Shown: positions 29,203 through 46,140 of the stretch, in pieces
Layout of the letters: each line of letters opens with the position of its first letter
How positions within the stretch are numbered: position 1 is the stretch's first letter
Source: Liolophura sinensis
Taxonomy: Eukaryota > Mollusca > Polyplacophora > Chitonida > Chitonidae
Assembly (NCBI RefSeq): GCF_032854445.1
Contig: NC_088296.1
Span: forward strand, 26,777,448-26,841,447
Direction: 5' to 3'
DNA length: 64,000 nt
Made by a program: the position numbers and the translations under genes
The notes under the pieces: model-generated
The model's input: only the letters and a program-made list of their open reading frames with translations
Told to the model about the DNA's origin: nothing
The model's database searches: none

Positions 29203-32200
29203 CTGAAAGGAAAGTAATGACATAATTAGATTTAATAACATACATTTCAATGAACACATGGCGTGAGTTTATCAAAAATATGGCGCCCTGTAAAGCGTTC
29301 TTTATCGCACTTAATTACCGGTAATTCTTAAACCGTCCTTTTTCATATGTTTGAAGGGTTCACACTGAAGTTAAATTTTTATAATTTGCCAACAGATTTT
29401 CATTGAGATTAAAAAGGACTGTGCAGTGTACGATATGTCTACTCATGCTCAAAAGAAACGAATGGCGTTTTATCCACCCGTAGCACTGTTACATTTCGCC
29501 CCGAATCGGGCTGTTAAGCGTACATTACAGACAGGCAGGTATAGAATGTAATTTTTAAAACAGCAATATGCAAAAACACCACAGCTATAGGAAAAAAAAC
29601 AGAAAACCTGTGTGTCAGATAGAGAGAGAAGGGACTGATGTAACGAAAGAAAGATAAAACTGAAGGGAACAACCTACTAAACAGCTTGGACCTCAGTAGC
29701 TTGTGTATGGGTACATGTACACTATTAAACAGTGTCATCAGACCTCATACGTATCTTCATTTCATGTGCATTGCTAAACAGAGTGTCATCAGTTCTCGTA
29801 CGTACTTTCATTTCATGTACATTATTAAACAGAGTGTCATCAGATCTCGTAGGTACTTTCATTTCATGTACATTATTAAACAGAGTGTCATCAGATCTCG
29901 TACGTACTTTCATTTTATGTACATTATTAAACAGCGTGTCATCAGATCTCGTAGGTACTTTCATTTCATGTACATTATTAAACAGAGTGTCATCAGATCT
30001 CGTACGTACTTTCATTTTATGTACATTATTAAACAGAGTGTCATCAGATCTCGTAGGTACTTTCATTTCATGTACATTATTAAACAGAGTGTCATCAGAT
30101 CTCGTAGATACCTTCAATTCATGTGCACTATTAAACAGAGTGTCATCAGATCTCGTACATACCTTCAATTCATGTGCACTATTAAACAGAGTGTCATCAG
30201 ATCTCGTACATATCTCTCAGTTCATGTGCACTATTAAACAGAGTGTCATCAGATCTCGTACATACCTTCAATTCATTGTGCACTATTAAACAGAGTGCCA
30301 TCAGATCTCGTAGATACCTTCAGTTCATGTACACTATTAAACAGAGTGTCATCAGATCTTGTACATATCTCTCAATTTATGTGCACTATTAAACAGAGTG
30401 TCATCAGATCTCGTACATACCTTCAATTCATTGTGCACTATTAAACAGAGTGCCATCAGATCTCGTACATATCTCTCAATTCATGTGCACTATTAAACAG
30501 TGTCATCAGATCTCGTACATACCTTCAATTCATTGTGCACTATTAAACAGAGTGCCATCAGATCTCGTAGATACCTTCAGTTCATGTACACTATTAAACA
30601 GAGTGCCATCAGATCTCGTACATACCTTCAATTCATGTGCACTATTAAACAGTGTCATCAGACCTCGTACATACCTTCAATTCATGTGCACTATTAAACA
30701 GAGTGCCATCAGATCTCGTACATACCTTCAATTCATGTGCACTATTAAACAGTGTCATCAGACCTCGTACATACCTTCAATTCATGTGCACTATTAAACA
30801 GAGTGCCATCAGACCTCGTACATACATTCAATTCATGTGCACTATTAAACAGAGTGCCATCAGACCTCGTACATACCTTCAATTCATGTGCACTATTAAA
30901 CAGAGTGCCATCAGACCTCGTACATACCTTCAATTCATGTGCACTATTAAACAGTGTCATCAGACCTCGTACATACCTTCAATTCATGTGCACTATTAAA
31001 CAGAGTGTCATCAGACCTCGTACATACCTTCAATTCATGTGCACTATTAAACAGAGTGCCATCAGACCTCGTACATACCTTCAATTCATGTGCACTATTA
31101 AACAGAGTGCCATCAGACCTCGTACATACCTTCAATTCATGTGCACTATTAAACAGTGTCATCAGACCTCGTACATACCTTCAATTCATGTGCACTATTA
31201 AACAGAGTGCCATCAGATCTCGTACATACCTTCAATTCATGTGCACTATTAAACAGAGTGCCATCAGACCTCGTACATACCTTCAATTCATGTGCACTAT
31301 TAAACAGTGTCATCAGACCTCGTACATACCTTCAATTCATGTGCACTATTAAACAGAGTGCCATCAGAAGTCGTACATACCTTTAATTCATGTGCACTAT
31401 TAAACAGTGTCATCAGACCTCGTACATACCTTCAATTCATTGTGCACTATTAAACAGAGTGCCATCAGACCTCGTACATACCTTCAATTCATGTGCACTA
31501 TTAAAAAGAGTGCCATCAGATCTCGTACATACCTTCAATTCATGTGCACTATTAAACAGTGTCATCAGACCTCGTACATACCTTCAATTCATGTGCACTA
31601 TTAAACAGAGTGCCATCAGACCTCGTACATACCTTCAATTCATGTGCACTATTAAAAAGAGTGCCATCAGACCTCGTACATACCTTCAATTCATGTGCAC
31701 TATTAAACAGTGTCATCAGATCTCGTACATACCTTCAATTCATGTGCACTATTAAACAGAGTGCCATCAGACCTCGTACATACATTCAATTCATGTGCAC
31801 TATTAAACAGAGTGCCATCAGACCTCGTACATACCTTCAATTCATGTGCACTATTAAACAGAGTGCCATCAGACCTCGTACATACCTTCAATTCATGTGC
31901 ACTATTAAACAGAGTGTCATCAGATCTTGTACATATCTCTCAATTTATGTGCACTATTAAACAGAGTGTCATCAGATCTCGTACATACCTTCAATTCATT
32001 GTGCACTATTAAACAGAGTGCCATCAGATCTCGTACATATCTCTCAATTCATGTGCACTATTAAACAGTGTCATCAGATCTCGTACATACCTTCAATTCA
32101 TTGTGCACTATTAAACAGAGTGCCATCAGATCTCGTAGATACCTTCAGTTCATGTACACTATTAAACAGAGTGCCATCAGATCTCGTACATACCTTCAAT

Positions 32201-35200
32201 TCATGTGCACTATTAAACTGTGTCATCAGACCTCGTACATACCTTCAATTCATGTGCACTATTAAACAGAGTGCCATCAGATCTCGTACATACCTTCAAT
32301 TCATGTGCACTATTAAACAGTGTCATCAGACCTCGTACATACCTTCAATTCATGTGCACTATTAAACAGAGTGCCATCAGACCTCGTACATACATTCAAT
32401 TCATGTGCACTATTAAACAGAGTGCCATCAGACCTCGTACATACCTTCAATTCATGTGCACTATTAAACAGAGTGCCATCAGACCTCGTACATACCTTCA
32501 ATTCATGTGCACTATTAAACAGTGTCATCAGACCTCGTACATACCTTCAATTCATGTGCACTATTAAACAGAGTGCCATCAGACCTCGTACATACCTTCA
32601 ATTCATGTGCACTATTAAACAGAGTGCCATCAGACCTCGTACATACCTTCAATTCATGTGCACTATTAAACAGAGTGCCATCAGACCTCGTACATACCTT
32701 CAATTCATGTGCACTATTAAACAGTGTCATCAGACCTCGTACATACCTTCAATTCATGTGCACTATTAAACAGAGTGCCATCAGATCTCGTACATACCTT
32801 CAATTCATGTGCACTATTAAACAGAGTGCCATCAGACCTCGTACATACCTTCAATTCATGTGCACTATTAAACAGTGTCATCAGACCTCGTACATACCTT
32901 CAATTCATGTGCACTATTAAACAGAGTGCCATCAGAAGTCGTACATACCTTTAATTCATGTGCACTATTAAACAGTGTCATCAGACCTCGTACATACCTT
33001 CAATTCATTGTGCACTATTAAACAGAGTGCCATCAGACCTCGTACATACCTTCAATTCATGTGCACTATTAAAAAGAGTGCCATCAGATCTCGTACATAC
33101 CTTCAATTCATGTGCACTATTAAACAGTGTCATCAGACCTCGTACATACCTTCAATTCATGTGCACTATTAAACAGAGTGCCATCAGACCTCGTACATAC
33201 CTTCAATTCATGTGCACTATTAAACAGAGTGCCATCAGACCTCGTACATACCTTAAATTCATGTGCACTATTAAACAGAGTGTCATCAGATCTCGTACAT
33301 ACCTTCAATTCATGTGCACTATTAAACAGAGTGCCATCAGACCTCGTACATACATTCAATTCATGTGCACTATTAAACAGAGTGCCATCAGACCTCGTAC
33401 ATACCTTCAATTCATGTGCACTATTAAACAGAGTGCCATCAGACCTCGTACATACCTTCAATTCATGTGCACTATTAAACAGTGTCATCAGACCTCGTAC
33501 ATACCTTCAATTCATGTGCACTATTAAACAGAGTGCCATCAGACCTCGTACATACCTTCAATTCATGTGCACTATTAAACAGAGTGCCATCAGACCTCGT
33601 ACATACCTTCAATTCATGTGCACTATTAAACAGAGTGCCATCAGACCTCGTACATACCTTCAATTCATGTGCACTATTAAACAGTGTCATCAGACCTCGT
33701 ACATACCTTCAATTCATGTGCACTATTAAACAGAGTGCCATCAGGCCTCGTACATACCTTCAATTCATGTGCACTATTAAACAGAGTGCCATCAGACCTC
33801 GTACATACCTTCAATTCATGTGCACTATTAAACAGTGTCATCAGACCTCGTACATACCTTCAATTCATGTGCACTATTAAACAGAGTGCCATCAGACCTC
33901 GTACATACCTTTAATTCATGTGCACTATTAAACAGTGTCATCAGACCTCGTACATACCTTCAATTCATTGTGCACTATTAAACAGAGTGCCATCAGACCT
34001 CGTACATACCTTCAATTCATGTGCACTATTAAAAAGAGTGCCATCAGATCTCGTACATACCTTCAATTCATGTGCACTATTAAACAGTGTCATCAGACCT
34101 CGTACATACCTTCAATTCATGTGCACTATTAAACAGAGTGCCATCAGACCTCGTACATACCTTCAATTCATGTGCACTATTAAACAGAGTGCCATCAGAC
34201 CTCGTACATACCTTCAATTCATGTGCACTATTAAACAGTGTCATCAGACCTCGTACATACCTTCAATTCATTGTGCACTATTAAACAGAGTGTCATCAGC
34301 TCTTGTACATATCTCTCAATTCATGTGCACTATTAAACAGACTGTCATCAGATCTCGTACATACCTTTAATTCAAATTTTTCCTTTATCCGTCTGGCTAG
34401 TATAGCTAAAGCCTCATCTACGTTCGTGTTTTCACGACAGCTGATCTCGTGGTATTCAATTTGGTGGAATTCTGCAAACTGACAAAAGAAAAAAAAAACG
34501 AAAATATGAAAAGGTTAGCTTAGTACAAATGTTTACCCAAAGCACTGACAGCGTTGTTTAAGACGTGTTCCCTGGTGTGAACGGACAAAAGGCCGTATGT
34601 CAGTGGTAGAACATACATGTACCATTTGCTAACTACATTTATTACACCTTCGCCAGTCCTCTGCTTTTACTCTCAGTGCTGTAGTATATTATATTCAGAT
34701 AGACACACGTACCACAGATAGCCACACCTACCACAGATAGCCACACCTACCACAGATAGCCACGCCTACCACAGTTGTTTTTCAAACTTTAGTGTTATAA
34801 ACTGGATGATTTCTAGATGATCGCCTTATATGTCTTCAAGCATATAACCAGGCACGAAGAAATGTTTTATCGGGCCGAATGGGCTTCCGTACTTACCTGC
34901 TTAGCTCTTTCTTTACTGACACATCTTTTTGTGCTCAGATCTATTTTATTGCCTACTATCAGTTTACATATGTCTTCTGTGCTGTTCTGAAAGTAAAAGC
35001 GAAAGTGAAAAATATGGAACTATATGCCTGTATGAAACACCCATGCTGTAACCAAAAGGTTCTCAGCCTACATAAGCTTTCTCTTTGAGTTAGAAAACAG
35101 GGCAGAAATTTATGCAAAACACACTGTAAGGGCGAGAGGGTCGTGGTCTATTTGGGGAGCGGACAGTGTCGGAGTGGCTAGAGGTGCTTGTTCATCTTTC

Positions 35201-38200
35201 AATCACTAGGAGACACATGGTGTGGGTTCAAAACCCACCATGGATAGGGACTTTGTATATTACCCCACTGTCACTGTTTGTGTTTGGGGGTGTGGGGGTG
35301 TGGAGGGTCTTCTTCCACTGGAAGACCACTTGTCTTCCGCCAGTATGTTGTGTATATCTGTCCCCACGTGACACATGGAATGATGACCATCCACTGGTCT
35401 GTGGTGTACTCTGCTTTTCCCTGCCTAAAGATCTAGAGCTGACTGCCATTATACAAATGAAAACTTATTCAGTACGGTACAGCTTAATTAAACAACAATG
35501 AAATCAATGAAATAAATATCGTAATAAGGACTGAACGTTAATATAAACTGCTGTTCACCTGTTCTCTCCTTCGCTAAATAGTGCCTAAATGTACCATGCA
35601 CCATCGCAAAGTGATAACCATGGCACAGTAATGGTGACAACAACACAGGCCTATTGTAGGGCAATTAACCATGGCACATTAATGGCGACAACAACACAAG
35701 CCTATATGTAGGGCAATTAACAACGGCACAGTAATGATGACAACAACACAGGCCTTTATGTAGGGCAATTAACCATGGCACAGTAAGGGCGACAACAACA
35801 CAGGCCTATATGTAGCGCAATTAACCATGGCACAGTAATGATGCCAACAACACAGGCCTATATGTAGGGCAATTAACCATGGCACAGTAATGGGGACAAC
35901 AACACAGGCCTTTATGTAGTGCAATTAACCATGGACATTAAGGGCGACAACAACACAGGCCTATATGTAGGGCAATTAACCATGGCACAGTAAGGGCGAC
36001 AACAACACAGGCATATTGTAGGGCAATTAACCATGGCACAGTAAGGGCGACAACAACACAGGGCTATTTGTAGGGCAATTAACCACGGCACAGTAATGGC
36101 GACAACAACACAGGCCTATATGTAGGGCAATTAACCATGGCACAGTAAGGGCGACAACAACACAGGCATATTGTAGGGCAATTAACCATGGCACAGTAAG
36201 GGCGACAACAACACAGGGCTATTTGTAGGGCAATTAACCACGGCACAGTAATGGTGACAAAAACACAGGCCTATATGTAGGGCAATTAACCATGGCACAG
36301 TAATGGTGACAACAACACAGGCCTATATGTAGGGCAATTAACCATGGCACAGTAAGGGCGACAACAACACAGGCCTATATGTAGGGCAATTAACCACGGC
36401 ACAGTAATGGCGACAACAACACAGGCCTATATGTAGGGCAATTAACCATGGCACAGTAAGGGCGACAACAACACAGGCCTATATGTAGCGCAATTAACCA
36501 TGGCATAGTAAGGGCGACTACAACACATTTAACACATAATTGCCTACATGTAACACAAATGTGCCATGTAGGGCAATCGTTCTTGGTATCCATTTCTTAT
36601 AGTAATTTCCAAAGTCTTGTCAGAATTAAACATTCAGTCTTTTAAATGAAATTTTGTTTTAGTTCAGACGTTTGACCCGACTGAAATGCTGTCAAGCCAC
36701 ATGATCTGTCAGAGCATGTAGGGCAGGTAGAAAGAGCCCAGGCACTGGACTATTTTTGGTTTTGTCTCACCTCATTTACATCTCGTAACCAGCGAGGCAA
36801 GCTGCTGAACGAATCCTCATTTGTGACGTCATACATGATAACGATTCCCTATAAATAAGAGCCGTATATATTCAGTGGAAGTCAAATGTATGACAACATA
36901 ATTTAGGCCTAATCTAACAGATTGGTGCAATGACTAGTTGCACAGATATACAGGAAAGAAGCCAAATTCCTATGCTAATACTTTCTTAATAGGCCTACAA
37001 TACATGCACAAAATTAATTATTGTATCCATGCAGAAGATTTTATTTCCTTGAGTGGTGACAATACGTAATTCACGGATTCTCTTAAGCTGTACATTTCGC
37101 GTGAGTCTAATAAACTTCTATAAACTTTACCTATTGTCAAGGCGATGTCCAAACAACTTAAATCAATCACGATCAGCTCACAATGGCGTTCTAAAGTCGA
37201 GGACTCACCGTCAGAATATTCATGGACACATGAATGGCTAATTCCCACCTCCATCTTCATCTTCCCACCTCCACCTTCATTTTCCCACCGCCATAAATCA
37301 GATGTTATTTACGAAACAAGTAATGACAAATCTTATCGACTGGAACTTGCCTGTGGTCATTTGCTGTTTTTATTAATTTATTTATTTATTTATACTGCGG
37401 AGTTATGCTACACATAAGTAAAAAATTGAGTGAAAAATAGCTGTGGAAAAAGCTGTCATCGCGCAGTCTGGTCGTACAGCGTATTCGTGTTGTGGGTTAT
37501 TAACCCTGATAGAGTACTGACCTCTGCTCCCCGGTAGAACCCGGATGTCAGGGTTCTGTATCTCTCCTGTCCCGCTGTGTCCCTGTGGAGAAATAACGGA
37601 ATAGTACATCACGAGGATTGCTTACGCCATACATGTAGGTCCCTGTGGGGAAATAACGGTACAGAACACCACAAGGATTGCTTACGCCATACATGTAAGT
37701 CCCTGTGGAGAAACAACGGTACAGTATATCACGAGGATTGCTTACGCCATACATGTAGGTCCCTGTGGAGAAACAACGGTACAGTATATATCACGAGGAT
37801 TGCTTACGCCATACATGTAGGTCCCTGTGGGGAAATAACGGTACAGAACACCACAAGGATTGCTTACGCCATACATGTAGGTCCCTGTGGAGAAACAACG
37901 GTACAGTATATCACGAGGATTGCTTACGCCATACATGTAGGTCCCTGTGGAGAAACAACGGTACAGTATATCACGAGGATTGCTTACGCCATACATGTAG
38001 GTCCCTGTGGAGAAATAACGGTACAATACTACACAAGGATTGATTACGCCATACATCTAGGTCCCTGTGGAGGAATAACGGTACAATACTACACAAGGAT
38101 TGATTATGCCATACATCTAGGTCCCTGTGGAGAAATAACGGTACAATACTACACAAGGATTGCTTACGCCATACATGTAGGTCCCTGTGGGGGAAAAACG

Positions 38201-41200
38201 GTGCAGTACACCACAAGGATTGCTTACGCCATACATGTAGATGTTTGCTTACTCCATACATNNNNNNNNNNNNNNNNNNNNNNNNNNNNNNNNNNNNNNN
38301 NNNNNNNNNNNNNNNNNNNNNNNNNNNNNNNNNNNNNNNNNNNNNNNNNNNNNNNNNNNNNNNNNNNNNNNNNNNNNNNNNNNNNNNNNNNNNNNNNNNN
38401 NNNNNNNNNNNNNNNNNNNNNNNNNNNNNNNNNNNNNNNNNNNNNNNNNNNNNNNNNNNNNCGATGTGGCGTATTTGGCTGAATCAGTGTCGATGTGGCG
38501 TATATGTCTGAATCAGTGTCGATGTGGCGTATTTGGCTGAATCAGTGTCGATGTGGCGTATATGTCTGAATTAGTGTCGATGTGTCGTATTTGGCTGAAT
38601 CAGTGCCGATGTGGCGTATATGTCTGAATCAGTGTCGATGTGGCGTATTTGGCTGAATCAGTGTCGATGTGGCGTATATGTCTGAATTAGTGTCGATGTG
38701 GCGTATATGTCTGAATCAGTTTCGATGTGGCGTATTTGGTTGAATCAGTGGCCGATGTGGCGTATTTGGCTGAATCAGTGTCGATGTGGCGTATATGTCT
38801 GAATCAGTGTCGATGTGGCGTATTTGGCTGAATCAGTGTCGATGTGGCGTATATGTCTGAATTAGTGTCGATGTGGCGTATTTGGCTGAATCAGTGTCGA
38901 TGTGGCGTATATGTCTGAATCAGTGTCGATGTGGCGTATTTGGCTGAATCAGTGTCGATGTGGCGTATATGTCTGAATCAGTGTCGATGTGGCGTATTTG
39001 GTTGAATCAGTGCCGATGTGGCGTATTTGGCTGAATCAGTGTCGATGTGGCGTATATGTCTAAATCAGTGTCGATGTGGCGTATTTGGCTGAATCAGTGT
39101 CGATGTGGCGTATTTGGCTGAATCAGTGCCGATGTGGCGTATTTGGCTGAATCAGTGCCGATGTGGCGTATTTGACTGAACCAGTGCCGATGTGGGGTAT
39201 ATGTCTGAATCAGTGTCGATGTGGCGTATTTGGCTGAATCGGTGCCGATGTGGGCGTATATGTCTAAATCAGTGTCGATGTGGCGTATTTGGCTGAATCA
39301 GTGCCGATGTGGCGTATATGTCTAAATCAGTGTCGATGTGGCGTATTTGGCTGAATCAGTGCCGATGTGGCGTATATGTCTGAATCAGTGTCGATGTGGC
39401 GTATTTGGCTGAATCAGTGTCGATGTGGAGTATTTGGCTGAATCAGTGTCGATGTGGCGTATATGTCGAAAATCAGTGTCGATGTGGCGTATATGTCAAA
39501 ATCAGTGTCGATGTGGCGTATATGTCAAAATCAGTGTCGATGTGGCGTATTTGGCTGAATCAGTGTCGATGTGGCGTATATGTCTAAATCAGTGTCGATG
39601 TGGCGTATTTGGCTGAATCAGTGTCGATGTGGCGTATTGGCAGAATCAGTGTCGATGTGGCGTATATGTCAAAATCAGTGTCGATGTGGCGTATATGTCA
39701 AACTCAGTGTCGATGTGGCGTATTTGGCAGAATCAGTGTCGATGTGGCGTATATGTCAAAATCAGTGTCGATGTGGCGTATACGTCAAACTCAGTGTCGA
39801 TGTGGCGTATTTGGCAGAATCAGTGTCGATGTGGCGTAAAGATACAATCACTCATACAAAAACTATGTAACGATTTACAGCCCGAATCATTTATGAAAAT
39901 GCATAATCCACACAAATACTATATCAGATTGCCATTTGCACGAAGACACATTTTAAGCCTACCAGTCTGCGATCTTCCCAATGCCATGCAGTTGTTTGTT
40001 GATGTAAGAGTTTTCAGTACACATGTCCTGTCTAAATTTTTCTGGTACATGAAGAATGGGGATGATATGCCCCGGGCACCCACTGCGGTTTACTCCACCC
40101 ACAGCCTTAACTCCTTTGTCAGGAGTCAGTTGACGATGATTGCGTACACTTATCAGTAATTTAAAAGCAAAAAAAGGCTGGTTCATGCGGTTTTCAGCCC
40201 TGAGCGTATACATCTATGCATATAACCCGTATGTCCTGTACATGAAGAAGGGCAGACATGTCCTTCCCACAAATCGGTTTCTTCTGCCGTACTCTTCACA
40301 ACATTATTTATTTATTTGATGGATGATTTACGCCGTACTCAACAATATTTCACTTATACGACAGCGGCCAGCATTATGGTGGGAGAAAACTGGATAGAGC
40401 CCTGGGAAACCTACGACCATCGACAGGTTTCTGGCAGACCTTCCCACGTACCACCGGAGGTGAAGCCAGCATGAGCTGGACTTGAAATCACAGCGATTAC
40501 ATTGGTGAGAGGCTCCTGGGTCATTACTCTGCGCTAGCGCGCTAACCAACTGAACCACGGAGGCCCCCCTTAACAACATTAGTTCCTATACGTGTACATG
40601 TAAAAGCAATGTTCCCGAGAACAGCGTTTAACACCAAAAAAGGAATATATACAAATGTATGTAAATGTTTGTATTAATACAGTAATTATAAACTGATTTT
40701 CCTTCTGAAGTCTTGATCACATTTTTCTAACGTACTGTACGACAAGATGTGGTTTGAAAGTGTAAACATCGTCTATTATATGTGACAGAAACCAGTGTGA
40801 TCAACTATGTTGTGGTAGACGTTTTTGGCATTTTGCTTAGTTGGCTGCAGATTTATATCCAGCAAAAATGTCAGCCCTTTACTGTTTAATAAAAATACAA
40901 GAACTGGTTAAACAGGGACAATGTTATAAATACGTTGGATGCAAAATTGCTTATCTGAGGTTACACGTTCATCGGTTAAAGGTTTAACAAATATTGCCTA
41001 AAATAGATTCGGCTATAACCAAGATTTTTATCTGGAAGAATGATTTTGCGTGGTTTAATGTTCTATCACGCGACCTTGTTTTTACTGTTAAGAGTGCTTG
41101 TCGGTTCGCCGCAACATGCGCAACCTTCCCGCTCATGTAACACGAAGGTAAATGTACCTAGGATATTACTATACAGGGACCACTGATACATACCTGTATT

Positions 41201-43400
41201 ACCCCCATCATTTGCTTGTGTAACATCACGGTGATTGTCCATGTGTGCTAACCTATTAAATACATGTATCATTTCCTACCGGCTCTACCCGATTTCCTCC
41301 CACCATAATGCTGGCCGCCGTCGCATCAGTGAAATATTTTGAGTACGGGGTAAAACACCAACCAAACTGTGAGTTTGCCCCGGCCACTGCTTGTTTTCCT
41401 CCACTATAGATGCTGGTCGCCGGTGCATAAACGAAACATATTTGACTACGGCGTAAAGCTTATATATTATTCAAAAAATATATAAATAAATAAACCCCCA
41501 ATCAATGACTGAAGAGACACTTCCTTCTACTAACTGATTTGTGTTAGGGTTAAGTTAGTTACGAATGCTGACCTAGTATAACCCCGTATATCCTTATATC
41601 ACAGAGGGTAATTACCATTTTATTGGCTAAAGCATGTGACTGGCCAGGTGGGGTTATAATTAGCCTATATCAGAACGGAGGCTAATCTAATTTAGTCATC
41701 ATGATTATGTCACCGTGAACAAAGCTAACGGGGACAGGGCCACCCATAGCTTAAATCGCCAGACAAAGATTTTCCCCTAATGTTTCCTCATCCATACATC
41801 GTATTACAAGTAATCTGTACGAAGATTCTTGTATTTATCAGACAAAGGAACCATATTGTCAAATTATCAAAGAATGATTTCAGATAAAATCTAATCGAGG
41901 TATGGCTAAGATATTGTTTTATCGATGTTTATGGGATTGTAGCAAATCTATCGGGAAGTGCCATTTATTTATTTGCTTGGTGTTTTACGCCGCACTCAAG
42001 AATATTGGAAAGTATCACTGATAATATTATGCAATCATTTCAATAAAACTGTCAGAGTTGATCTGGGACGAGTGTGACAACAGGTGCAATAACACAAACT
42101 GCATTGTCTTCCTCACAGGCCATCGTGATCATAAGACAAATCTGATGGTTGCTTTGTTTTCAGAAGTAACACTGCTCAACAATGACATAAAGAAGTGTTG
42201 AGAACGCAGTGCACAATAATCTATGTTACAATATACTATCTGATTTACGCTATCCGTACTTAAGAATTTCACTTACATGACAGGGGTCAGGATTATGGGT
42301 GGGGAAAACCTGAGTTCCCAGAGTTAATCACCGACCTTCGTCAGGTACCTGGTAAACCCACTGATTAAAAACCGCAGCCCAAACAGCTATATAGCTTATA
42401 CCGTTTGAAATGGTTGTTATAGGGCTAGGCGCAAATATTCGTATAGGTGATCTTATAACCTTGATGTTTGTGGTCTAACACAAAATATAGGCCTTTATGC
42501 GGGGAGGTCTGACAGCAACCTGCCGATGGTCGTGGGTTTCCCTCGGGCTCTGTCCGTTTTCTCCACCATAATGCTGGCCGCCGTCGTATAGGTGAAATAT
42601 TCTTGAGTACGGCGTAAAACACCAAATAAAATAAATACACAAATGAAAACATAGGCTTTCACATCCTCGCCATATAAACTTGTACCCAGTATTACCCTTT
42701 GTGAATGTTCACACCTGCCGACATTACGTTCAGCCAGTCATACAAATGCACGCCAACCTTAGGGTTTATTACTTTATTATTAGCGTTTTGTGGGTGGGAA
42801 AAAACTCGCCAATCACCTGGCAAAAAATGTTCTCTTAAAACCACTAAACATCGGGAGTTGGATTCGAACACGCGACGTCACAAACCACGACCGAGCTAAC
42901 GTGGCGGTCAACAACTATATCATCAGTTACTCTTGGACACCTACACAATCATAGTGGATGTCTAATTACAGACGTTGTTTTTCTTTATGGCATGTATGTA
43001 AGCAGTTTTGATATATACAGGTAACTTTCAAAAAACGTTTCTGCACAAGGACGATCCTTTCTCAGCTATATAAACATTAAATTCTTCTGGAGAACTGCAA
43101 TTCTATAATAACTACTGAAAAAGGAGCGTATACGGGACAAACTGCAGAGCAAATTATGTAATTCACATCTACCAAACATTTCAATGGTACAGGTGTTTAT
43201 ATAGGCCTAAAAATAAACAACAAAGAGAGGTGGGAATGCAGCATAGTGACAATAAGAGACAGGCTGACTTACCCACTGTATGTATAGGATTCTCCGCGTA
43301 CACCTTGTCACAGTACCTGAGCATTAGGGAGGTTTTTTCCCACCCCCATCTCCCCCACGACTATCACCTTAAACATTACAGCACTGTCTGACGAGCTCAT
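29122..43400 (-). CDS. Rab-family small GTPase gene (six exons found)
   Basis: I assembled this gene from exons at 43400-43273, 37582-37522, 36848-36771, 34986-34897, 34478-34365 and 29202-29122, all with AG/GT borders and matching phases from the second found exon onward. The product is a membrane-bound molecular switch for vesicle traffic. Visible motifs are the P-loop GEMGVGK, switch II DTAGQERYRTLTS, MYDVTNEDSF, the guanine-specificity GNKIDL, SCRENTN in the SAK-loop position, and a cysteine tail FKCPCI for prenylation. The segment around residue 25-43 (RYCDKVYAENP) and YDVTNE suggest the Rab3/26/27/37 group, but I cannot fix the subfamily. Two defects are visible. The switch I exon (about 23 residues, up to LQIW) was not found between 37583 and 43272, where a 200-N gap lies. 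The P-loop codons carry one extra A. With the missing exon the protein would be about 205 residues, normal for a Rab. Confidence 0.9.
29203..29711. other. Rab last intron, unique part
   Basis: Non-repetitive AT-rich intron sequence between the last exon and the 51-bp array. No other feature is supported. Confidence 0.6.
29712..34364 (-). repeat. 49-51 bp minisatellite built on a 5' splice site
   Basis: There are about 90 copies. On the gene strand each unit reads GAATTGAAG|GTATGTACGAG, then TCTGATGGCACTCTGTTTAA and TAGTGCACAT. The real exon end is GAATTAAAG|GTATGTACGAG, so every unit copies the exon edge and donor. Units near 31380, 32948 and 33908 carry the exact exonic bases. Distal units (29712-30110) are most diverged (GTACGTACGAG or GTACCTACGAG). 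Units come in 51-bp and 49-bp forms (AACAGAGTG versus AACAGTG). Confidence 0.95.
34365..34478 (-). CDS. Rab gene, SCRENTN exon
   Basis: The exon has 38 codons in phase 0, acceptor TTTTCTTTTGTCAG and donor AAG|GTATGT. It encodes FAEFHQIEYHEISCRENTN (the position of the ETSAK-type loop) and the C-terminal helix up to RRIKEKFELK. The 51-bp array begins exactly at this donor and repeats it. Confidence 0.92.
34479..34896 (-). other. Rab intron with short 20-bp repeat
   Basis: The 418-bp intron contains four copies of ACCACAGATAGCCACACCT-like sequence at about 34706-34773. Nothing else is recognised. Confidence 0.6.
34897..34986 (-). CDS. Rab gene, NKID exon
   Basis: The exon has 30 codons in phase 0, acceptor TTTTACTTTCAG and donor CAG|GTAAGT. 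It contains KLIVGNKIDL, the guanine-base recognition motif, followed by a helix with VSKERAKQ. Confidence 0.93.
35155..35515 (+). mobile_element. tRNA-derived SINE-like element, family 2
   Basis: The head looks like a tRNA with a long variable arm: GTCGGAGTGGCTAGAGGTGC, then GTGGGTTCAAAACCCACC as B box. A body follows with AGACCACTTGTCTTCCGCCA, shared with 24738 and 51612, and an AATGAAATAAATATCG-like end. It sits in the Rab intron between 34986 and 36771. Confidence 0.55.
35595..36535 (+). repeat. 52-bp minisatellite, about 18 copies
   Basis: The unit contains AATTAACCATGGCACAGTAA, GGCGACAACAACACAGGCCT and ATATGTAGGGC. Variants alternate TAATGG/TAAGGG and CCTATATG/CATATTG. It lies in the same Rab intron as the family 2 element, away from the exon edges. 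Confidence 0.93.
36771..36848 (-). CDS. Rab gene, exon with YDVTNEDSF
   Basis: The exon has 26 codons in phase 0, acceptor CTTATTTATAG and donor GAG|GTGAGA. It encodes GIVIMYDVTNEDSF and then LPRWLRDVNE, the central beta strand and helix 3 of a Rab fold. Confidence 0.93.
37522..37582 (-). CDS. Rab gene, switch II exon
   Basis: The acceptor TTTCTCCACAG is followed by G, which completes the Trp codon of the invariant WDTAGQ, then DTAGQERYRTLTSGFYRGAE. The donor is GAG|GTCAGT. The 61-bp exon ends in phase 0. A 60-bp tandem array begins immediately at its upstream edge and repeats this acceptor. Confidence 0.93.
37583..38261 (-). repeat. 60-bp minisatellite built on a 3' splice site
   Basis: There are about 11 copies. 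On the gene strand each unit contains TTTCTCCACAG|GGACCTAC, matching the real acceptor and first exon bases TTTCTCCACAG|GGACAC at 37582. The rest of the unit includes ATGTATGGCGTAAGCAATCC. The unit length keeps 20-codon frames open on both strands, which I consider non-coding. The array runs into the N gap. Confidence 0.95.
38262..38461. other. Assembly gap, exactly 200 N
   Basis: The run of N is exactly 200 long, a usual placeholder for unknown size. It separates the 60-bp array from a different 29-bp array, so unique sequence, possibly the missing Rab switch I exon, may be lost here. Confidence 0.98.
38462..39839 (+). repeat. 29-bp minisatellite with 58-bp dimers, about 47 copies
   Basis: The unit is CGATGTGGCGTATTTGGCTG plus AATCAGTGT. 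A second type has TATATGTCTG in place of TATTTGGCTG, and the two often alternate. The rightmost units change to TATGTCAAAATCAG and TTTGGCAGAATCAG. It lies within the first long Rab intron. Confidence 0.95.
39840..40303. other. Rab intron, unique sequence
   Basis: I searched both strands for the missing switch I exon (an IDFK/VDFK to LQIW coding block with splice sites) and did not find it. No other feature is recognised. Confidence 0.5.
40304..40568 (-). mobile_element. Full-length tRNA-derived SINE, family 1
   Basis: Read on the minus strand it starts GGGGGGCCTCCGTGGTTCAG, continues TTGGTTAGCGCGCTAGCGCA (A box) and has a weakened B box in place of GAGTTCAAGTCC. The body has CAGCTCATGCTGGCTTCACC and ATAATGCTGGCCGCTGTCGT, and it ends in an ATAAATAAATAAT tail. 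Confidence 0.9.
40569..41276. other. Rab intron, unique sequence
   Basis: No exon is supported on either strand; the missing Rab exon was looked for here without success. Confidence 0.45.
41277..41495 (+). mobile_element. Two truncated family 1 SINE copies in tandem
   Basis: The first copy (about 41277-41365) keeps TTTCCTCCCACCATAATGCT and GAGTACGGGGTAAAACACCA. The second (about 41375-41495) keeps TGCCCCGGCCACTGC, GATGCTGGTCGCCGG and an AAATAAATAAA tail. Both are 3' ends only. Confidence 0.7.
41496..42239. other. Rab intron; one SINE tail fragment
   Basis: The only recognised element is a reverse family 1 tail fragment at about 41963-42006 (TTATTTATTTGCTTGGTGTT). No exon is supported. Confidence 0.45.
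42240..42360 (-). mobile_element. Degraded SINE fragment, family 1
   Basis: In reverse it retains the TTACGC..GTACTTAAGAATTTCAC tail block, the GGTCAGGATTATGGGTGGGG block and an ACCGACCTTCGTCAGGTACC block. It is strongly diverged. Confidence 0.55.
42495..42640 (+). mobile_element. 3' half of a family 1 SINE
   Basis: The copy keeps GGTCTGACAGCAACCTGCCG, TCGTGGGTTTCCCTCGGGCT, ATAATGCTGGCCGCCGTCGT and TTGAGTACGGCGTAAAACAC with an AAATAAAATAAATA tail. The tRNA-like head is missing. Confidence 0.85.
42840..42908 (-). repeat. tRNA-like sequence, probably a SINE head
   Basis: On the minus strand it has a partial A box (TTAGCTCGGTCGTGG) and a good B box (GTGTTCGAATCC) at tRNA-like spacing, but no closing acceptor stem. 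It is therefore a tRNA-derived fragment, not a functional tRNA gene. Confidence 0.4.
43273..43400 (-). CDS. Rab gene, first coding exon (P-loop), frameshifted
   Basis: The ATG at 43400-43398 has A at -3. The frame reads MSSSDSAVMFKVIVVGEMG up to GVGK, then meets six A residues (forward T6 at 43333-43338) where five would continue KTSLMLRYCDKVYAENP. Downstream of the run the correct residues continue in the shifted frame to the donor GG|GTAAGT. The uncorrected frame stops soon after the run. All other exons are intact, so a homopolymer error in the assembly is the simplest reading. A true null allele is possible. Confidence 0.85.
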
Positions 43401-45186: not shown

Positions 45187-46140
45187 GAAGTAACCTACCT
45201 CCCTTTGTCTGGAGTAACTTACCGCCCTTTCACTGGAGTAACCTACCTCCCTTTGTCTGGAGTAACTTGCCGCTCTTTGTCTGGAGTAACTTACTGCCCT
45301 TTGTCTGGAGTAACCTGACGCCCTTTCTCTGGAGTAACTTACCGCCCTTTCTCTGGAGCAACCTAACGCCCCTTGTCTGGAGTAACTTACCGCCCTTTGT
45401 CTGGAGTAACTTACCGCCCTTTCTCTGGAGTAACGTACCGCCCTTTCTCTGGAGTAACTTACCGCCCTTTTTCTCGAGTAACCTAACGCCCTTTGTCTGG
45501 AGTAACTTACCTCCTTTTCTCTGGAGTCACTTAACGCCCTTTCTCTGGAGTAACTTACCGCCCTTTCTCTGGAGTAACGTACCGCCCTTTCTCTGGAGTA
45601 ACTTACCGCCCTTTCTTTGGAGTAACCTAACGCCCTTTGTCTGGAGTAACTTACCGCCATTTGTCTGAAGTAACTTACCGCCCTTTCTCTGGAGTAAACT
45701 ACCGCCCTTTCCCTGGAGTAACTTACCGCCCTTTCTTTGGAGTAACCTAACGCCCTTTGTCTGGAGTAACTTACCGCCCTTTCTCTGGAGTAACCTAACG
45801 CCCTTTCTCTGGAGTAACTTACCGCCCTTTCTCTGGAGTAACTTACCGCCCTTTCTTTGGAGTAACCTAACGCCCTTTGTCTGGAGTAACCTGACGCCCT
45901 TTGTCTGGAGTAACTTACCGCCCTTTCTTTGGAGTAACCTAACGCCATTTGTCTGAAGTAACTTACCGCCCTTTCTCTGGAGTAACCTACCGCCCTTTGT
46001 CTGGAGTAACTTACCACCCTTTCTCTGGAGTAACCTAACGCCCTTTGTCTGGAGTAACTTACCGCCCTTTGTCTGGAGTAACCTAACGCCCTTTGTCTGA
46101 AGTAACCTACCGCCCTTTCTCTAGAGTAACCTACCGCCCT
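45187..46140 (-). repeat. 24-bp minisatellite with GTAAGTTAC core, about 40 copies
   Basis: The unit on plus is GGAGTAACTTACCGCCCTTT plus CTCT. On minus each unit reads GGGCG|GTAAGTTACTCC, a consensus-like 5' splice site. Some units read GTAGGTTAC or GTTAGGTTAC instead. The 24-bp length keeps frames open on both strands (WSNLPPFL on plus, RAVSYSRQ on minus), which I do not take as coding. Confidence 0.95.

What the first reader, a model, noticed from the sequence alone, without database searches (positions are those of the whole stretch)
37522..38261. A second array in the same gene copies a 3' splice site
The 60-bp array touches the switch II exon on its upstream side. Each unit has TTTCTCCACAG|GGAC, the same as the true acceptor and first exon bases. 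Two independent arrays in one gene, one seeded on a donor and one on an acceptor, are hard to explain by chance. They point to a process that forms minisatellites at exon edges.
Basis: partly seen in the sequence, partly recalled or inferred. Interest (0 to 1): 0.85.

Follow-up and report, generated by a model that had tools for sequence, protein, structure and literature searches.

The report
Tandem repeats that copy splice sites
In this chiton, short tandem repeats sometimes include the edge of an exon, so a gene carries rows of copied splice sites; the pattern is real and resembles the "mirage" repeats of amphioxus, but it looks mostly like a by-product of a repeat-rich genome rather than a special process aimed at exon edges.

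Summary
On the minus strand a Rab-type GTPase exon (37522-37582) is preceded by an array of 11 units of about 60 bp (37579-38240). Its exon-side unit holds the true acceptor and the first 4 exon bases. A 51-bp array (29714-34374) likewise includes the last 10 exon bases and the donor of the last exon found.

10 of 321 borders kept lie inside an array (6 donors, 4 acceptors), so it is a recurring class. Borders lie in an array's innermost unit about 3 times as often as positions shifted 110-400 bp into the intron (bootstrap 1.1-6.9), but only about twice as often as positions 110-200 bp away. A genome-wide donor-motif test shows no excess.

Best reading: arrays arise anywhere. Those that overlap an exon edge survive because the exon-proximal site keeps the protein unchanged. 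The kind is known as "mirages" in amphioxus; my searches found no description in a mollusc. The claim that two arrays in one gene defy chance fails given the base rate.

The parts
37522..37582 (-). switch II exon of a Rab-type GTPase gene (DTAGQERYRTLTSGFYRGAE)
   Evidence: tblastn with Ras-family exon matches of the same genome, best E 1.9e-7; four joined exons match PF00071 at 2.6e-34; splice sites read from the sequence
37583..37584 (-). true 3' splice site (AG) of that exon, part of the exon-proximal array unit
   Evidence: sequence
37579..38240 (-). 60-bp minisatellite, 11 units, each carrying CCACAG|GGAC; includes 4 exon bases and the acceptor
   Evidence: TRF, unit list
34365..34478 (-). 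last coding exon found (FAEFHQIEYHEISCRENTNVDEALAILARRIKEKFELK), with a donor GTATGT at 34364-34359
   Evidence: sequence, tblastn E 0.02, Pfam match of the joined exons
29714..34374 (-). 51-bp minisatellite, about 92 units, includes the last 10 exon bases and the donor; 84 of 91 decoy copies keep GT
   Evidence: TRF, decoy count
36771..36848 (-). exon GIVIMYDVTNEDSFSSLPRWLRDVNE of the same gene; TRF lists no array at either border
   Evidence: tblastn E 3.7e-7, TRF
34897..34986 (-). exon NSTEDICKLIVGNKIDLSTKRCVSKERAKQ of the same gene; TRF lists no array at either border
   Evidence: tblastn E 4e-6, TRF
43273..43400 (-). first coding exon found (P-loop), with one extra A in a homopolymer that breaks the frame in this assembly
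   Evidence: tblastn E 6e-4, frames
38262..38461 (.). run of 200 N between the 60-bp and the 29-bp arrays; the switch I exon, not found elsewhere, may lie here
   Evidence: between 37585 and 43267 only three hits with E 0.77-0.96

Best explanation
These are border-spanning minisatellites, of the kind called mirages in amphioxus. A stretch of some 34-95 bp that happened to overlap an exon edge was tandemly duplicated and then expanded, as minisatellites do widely in this genome. Because the exon-proximal splice site still defines the exon, the added copies fall inside the intron and the protein is unchanged, so such arrays are tolerated. Duplications wholly inside exons are mostly lost. Placement is random, or at most mildly biased, with respect to the border. 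Shown: that the arrays are in the assembly, that the class recurs and how often in the sample, the scatter of unit ends, and that most decoy copies keep their GT or AG. Inferred: that the exon-proximal site is the one used, that the arrays are near-neutral, and the loss of exon-internal duplications.
For: The same structure is found at 10 of 321 sampled borders (6 of 154 donors, 4 of 167 acceptors) at ten separate loci. The exon part of the units repeats recognisable coding sequence (for example L143, L119), so the exon is the source of the array and not the reverse. The exonic share of the unit ranges from 7% to 83% in 12 arrays, compatible with random placement. Array cover in the first sample is 8-9.5% at 200-400 bp in the intron, 3.8% at the border and 0.8% at 60 bp inside the exon. 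Donor motifs are no more often in tandem than the reversed motif (301/9,807 vs 158/4,854 rows; 7 of 132 vs 7 of 137 listed sites in clusters of three or more). Decoys are not clearly weakened: 145 of 159 copies keep GT or AG and 107 of 159 score at least as high as the true site (13 arrays); without the 51-bp array, which supplies 91 copies, 61 of 68 and 37 of 68.
Against: The border sample shows a 2- to 3-fold excess over shifted intron positions, with a bootstrap lower bound of 1.1-1.2 against the 110-400 bp controls, which pure chance placement does not predict. All 10 cases come from the Ras (5 of 183) and kinase (5 of 81) borders; the ABC and P450 borders gave 0 of 57. Near-neutrality is assumed: with up to 91 decoy donors in one intron, some mis-splicing would be expected. 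In the 60-bp array the true acceptor scores above all 10 decoys, though only slightly (4.8 against a mean of 4.1), and in L041 above 5 of 6 and L142 above 2 of 2.
Confidence: 0.68

Rival explanations
1. Exon borders are hot spots: a process tied to transcription or splicing (for example R-loop ends, pausing, repair template switching) starts tandem duplications at exon edges two to three times more often than elsewhere.
For: Border 3.1% against control 0.91-0.95% in innermost units for array score 100 or more, ratio 3.3-3.4, bootstrap intervals 1.15-6.22 to 1.21-6.85.
Against: The ratio falls to 1.9-2.2 against positions 110-200 bp away. No excess in the motif tests. Unit ends are scattered up to 79 bp into the exon rather than at the border. 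Controls far out are probably under-detected because the fetched flanks end at 550-650 bp (inference).
Confidence: 0.22
2. The copied splice sites are kept by selection and used: the array provides alternative acceptors or donors, or tunes splicing of the gene.
For: Decoys keep GT or AG in 145 of 159 copies. In C. elegans one intronic minisatellite family is over-represented near alternative splicing regions (PMC4039745, passages), so a link between minisatellites and splicing is not excluded in principle.
Against: High likeness of units is expected of any young array. Offsets from the true site are multiples of three in 20 of the 63 listed copies, as chance would give. In the 60-bp array the decoys 60, 120 and 180 bp upstream would read in frame into a stop about 10 codons before the exon.
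Confidence: 0.05
3. The arrays are assembly artefacts of collapsed or expanded long-read repeats next to a gap.
For: A 200-N run starts 21 bp after the 60-bp array, and HiFi coverage was 14X (PMC11068029, passage).
Against: The units are not all alike (three of the 11 are identical and a fourth differs from them by a 2-base insertion; the rest differ more or by single bases), and the same structure recurs at ten other borders in loci without N. Copy number may still be wrong.
Confidence: 0.04

Closest known systems
[quoted passage not shown]
   Same: Minisatellite-like arrays whose unit spans a 5' or 3' splice site and repeats exon bases; many copies keep splice signals (PMC3087553 and PMC3902484, passages read).
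   Different: Found here in a mollusc, with up to about 92 copies, and in a sample that gives a frequency (10 of 321 borders). Splicing and polymorphism, reported for amphioxus, could not be tested here.
[quoted passage not shown]
   Same: Starts from a duplication that crosses an intron-exon boundary (PMC4974935, abstract and outline only).
   Different: There one duplication made a new intron. Here many copies sit inside an intron, and I noticed no sign of a new exon or intron (not tested).
Ordinary intronic minisatellites of this genome
   Same: Similar unit lengths; 25 arrays cover 57% of the window.
   Different: These happen to take in a splice site.

Membership tests
Mirage (border-spanning minisatellite) | Tandem array of minisatellite-sized units | tested here: met
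   60 bp x 11 and 51 bp x 92
Mirage (border-spanning minisatellite) | Unit spans an intron-exon boundary, with exon bases included | tested here: met
   4 exon bases in the 60-bp array, 10 in the 51-bp array; 5-79 in the ten others
Mirage (border-spanning minisatellite) | Many copies keep AG/GT splice signals | tested here: met
   145 of 159 copies in 13 arrays; 61 of 68 without the 51-bp array
Mirage (border-spanning minisatellite) | Occurs at both 5' and 3' boundaries | tested here: met
   6 donors and 4 acceptors in the sample, one of each in the window gene
Mirage (border-spanning minisatellite) | Regular splicing is not disturbed | not testable with these tools
   no transcript reads held
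Mirage (border-spanning minisatellite) | Copy number varies between haplotypes or cells | not testable with these tools
   one assembly, no reads
Intron gain by tandem duplication | A duplicated segment has become a new intron or exon | not tested
   intron positions were not compared with other species

The most novel reading that the evidence does not exclude
In this chiton about 3% of exon borders (1.5-5.7%) carry border-spanning minisatellites, which, if the sample is representative, would mean thousands of rows of decoy splice sites genome-wide. Array birth is two to three times likelier at exon edges than elsewhere in introns, so a process tied to transcription or splicing seeds minisatellites there, convergently with amphioxus.
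Probability: 0.22. Interest if true: 0.65.

Novelty: new member of a known kind. Interest (0 to 1): 0.4.

Why it matters
It shows that mirage-type repeats, which the papers I read describe in amphioxus, also recur in a mollusc, and gives a first rate. Each such array is a natural test of how a spliceosome picks one site among many near-identical ones, and a reservoir from which new introns or alternative exon ends could arise. If the mild border excess proved real, it would link minisatellite birth to exon edges; the present data do not establish that.

Tried and rejected
Rejected: chance match to a splice motif (the true acceptor is itself a unit of the array). Rejected, with a caveat: dispersed repeat inserted at the exon (the genome-wide DNA search found no other copy of the unit, but it skips simple repeats and very common words). 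Not supported: decoys weakened by selection. Rejected: exon derived from the array (the copied exon parts are recognisable coding sequence).

Led nowhere: PF00083 gave only 11 matches and was not used. The search for chiton with minisatellite returned eight papers that by title are all on Theileria. The Conus intron paper speaks of microsatellites in introns, not of border-spanning arrays, in the two passages shown. A count of substitutions by codon position in decoy copies (14, 16, 27 at positions 1, 2, 3; five of six arrays usable) was too uneven to interpret.

Limits of the sample. From I used 51 of 138 kinase matches; the others were 350 nt or longer except 8 short ones near the end of the list, left out by hand. 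Of 221 acceptor and 221 donor ends, 167 and 154 passed my home-made splice scores (consensus recalled, cut-offs chosen by me, not trained); the other 121 were dropped. One dropped border (L135, weak acceptor) also lies at an array that takes in about 2 exon bases, so it is not in the count of 10. I moved the acceptor of L041 by hand from 549 to 565 because the automatic choice was inside the repeat; one search used the unmoved one. Exons that were not typed may lie in some flanks. In one search the script lost the register of degenerate arrays early (for example L142, 2 copies followed of about 8). The motif tests list only the first 100 places, all on C1 for the single motifs; the totals are whole-genome, and several rows can come from one array. 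Donor 9-mers (CAGGTAAGT) are twice as common as the reversed ones, so about half are probably not real donors, which dilutes that test.
Full report
What is there. The window is G000:C2:26777448-26841447 of a 609,464,459-base genome in 632 contigs. Contig lengths (C1 96,433,062; C9 37,343,639; C2 28,395,274) match the longest scaffold, N50 and scaffold_10 of the chiton assembly published as Liolophura japonica (PMC11068029, passages) and later corrected to L. sinensis (PMC12441733, whole text). On the minus strand lies a Rab-type GTPase gene. Coding exons found are 43273-43400 (P-loop), 37522-37582 (DTAGQERYRTLTSGFYRGAE), 36771-36848, 34897-34986 and 34365-34478. The last four joined match PF00071 with E 2.6e-34, and the best-scoring solved chains are Rab-8A, then yeast YPT1. 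The switch I exon was not found; a 200-N run (38262-38461) lies in the intron where it should be. The first exon carries an extra A in a homopolymer in the P-loop codons, so the gene is broken in this assembly; sequencing error or pseudogene cannot be told apart here.

The observation. The 60-bp array runs from 37579 to 38240 with 11 units. The exon's first base is 37582, so the exon-proximal unit contains the true acceptor and 4 exon bases. All 11 units keep CCACAG|GGAC and 7 of 11 the full TTTCTCCACAG|GGAC. The 51-bp array (29714-34374) ends inside the last exon found and contains its last 10 bases and the donor.

How unusual it is. I sampled exon borders from this genome: Ras- and kinase-family exon matches (158 loci) and ABC and P450 exon matches (40 loci). 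Borders were placed with a simple splice-site score and only those passing it were kept: 167 acceptors and 154 donors of 221 each. Ten of 321 borders lie within an array that takes in at least 3 exon bases: donors L015, L045, L063, L092, L099, L143 and acceptors L041, L117, L119, L142 (sequences). By family the counts are Ras 5 of 183, kinase 5 of 81, ABC 0 of 26 and P450 0 of 31. So this is a recurring class, at about 3% of the borders sampled (95% interval 1.5-5.7%). At that rate two or more arrays among the 9 borders defined in the window gene has probability 0.03, which is unremarkable for a gene picked because it has two. The local density in the window says the same: the summed unit lengths of its 25 arrays are 3.2% of the unique sequence.

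Are borders preferred? In the matched test, a border lies in the innermost unit of an array in 10 of 321 cases (3.1%). The same measure at positions shifted 110-400 bp into the intron is 0.9-1.1%, a ratio of 2.9-3.4 with bootstrap 95% intervals from 1.10-5.35 to 1.21-6.85 over four array cut-offs; against 110-200 bp alone it is 1.4-1.7%, a ratio of 1.9-2.2. Flanks of 550-650 bp probably under-detect arrays far out, which would inflate the first ratio. In the first sample, inner array edges per kb (score 50 or more) were 0.57, 0.63, 0.38, 0.45 and 0.68 in the bins from 10 to 200 bp in the intron, 0.38, 0.76 and 0.54 in the bins from 60 to 3 bp inside the exon, none between -3 and 10, and 0.08-0.23 from 200 to 400 bp. 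So at that cut-off the border does not stand out from its own neighbourhood; at score 150 or more the intron bins from 10 to 200 bp fall to 0.13-0.45 while the exon-side bins stay the same, which favours a mild excess. A genome-wide motif test that needs no gene models shows no preference: CAGGTAAGT occurs 9,807 times and gives 301 close triples, its reverse 4,854 times and 158 triples, that is 3.1% and 3.3%. Among the listed places, 7 of 132 donor sites and 7 of 137 control sites are in clusters of three or more. On C1 there are 10 donor arrays and 6 control arrays, counted by eye, compatible with the ratio of single motifs (p = 0.79) and not quite excluding a two-fold excess (p = 0.08). The exonic share of the unit is 7-83% in 12 arrays (KS against uniform p = 0.12), so the unit ends do not sit at the border.

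How it most likely works. Tandem duplication of a stretch that overlaps an exon edge leaves one intact splice site next to the exon, and the copies become intron. Consistent with tolerance rather than function, cover by arrays falls from 8-9.5% at 200-400 bp in the intron to 3.8% at the border and 0.8% at 60 bp inside the exon. Copied sites are not clearly degraded: 145 of 159 keep GT or AG and 107 of 159 score at least as high as the true one. The 51-bp array supplies 91 of these; without it the counts are 61 of 68 and 37 of 68. In the 60-bp array none of 10 decoys reaches the true site's score, by a small margin. Use of the decoys at 60, 120 or 180 bp there would read into an in-frame stop about 10 codons before the exon, so if the gene works, the exon-proximal acceptor is probably the one used; that step is inferred. 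In L092 the consensus of the decoy copies of the exon part carries stop codons, as expected for intronic sequence.

What is known. Amphioxus genes carry the same structures, called mirages: Adh3, globins BflGb6 and BflGb9, troponin C and PGBD5, at both 5' and 3' boundaries, with splicing reported or suggested to be undisturbed and copy number variable in some (PMC3087553 and PMC3902484, passages). A potato gene shows an intron gained from a duplication across a boundary (PMC4974935, abstract). In C. elegans an intronic minisatellite is over-represented near alternative splicing regions (PMC4039745, passages); that one is a repeat family, not a copied border. My searches for minisatellite with chiton, with mollusc plus intron plus tandem repeat, and for Liolophura with tandem repeat found no description of such arrays in a mollusc, judging from the listings and from passages of one Conus paper; the library lacks most subscription papers. 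I therefore file it as a new member of a known kind, with a frequency estimate in another phylum.

Verdict. Observation confirmed; the targeting interpretation is only weakly supported and not needed; interest moderate.

Noticed in passing
43340-43360 (minus strand): The P-loop exon of the Rab gene has one extra A in a run of six, breaking the frame in this assembly; a homopolymer sequencing error or a pseudogene.
   Followed up: partly
45189-46140 (minus strand): A 24-bp array of about 40 units has the consensus CCAGAGAAAGGGCG|GTAAGTTACT, a near-perfect donor, upstream of the first coding exon; it could be a third border array at a non-coding exon, but no transcript is held.
   Followed up: no
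2858-24461: A single 43-bp minisatellite of about 502 copies spans 21.6 kb.
   Followed up: no
whole window: 25 non-overlapping arrays with period 10 or more cover 57% of the window, against 6.8% in the first 158 sampled loci: an array-rich neighbourhood.
   Followed up: partly
G000:C9:14546132-14547237 and G000:C8:54576308-54576709: Two control-motif arrays themselves hold donor-like (CTGCAGGTAAGAATG) or splice-like strings in their units, so they may be further border arrays.
   Followed up: no
L045 (G000:C4:21259721-21260976): A Ras-family exon whose last 79 bases are repeated in a 95-bp array of about 6.5 copies within the fetched stretch; a large part of the exon is copied into the intron.
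   Followed up: partly
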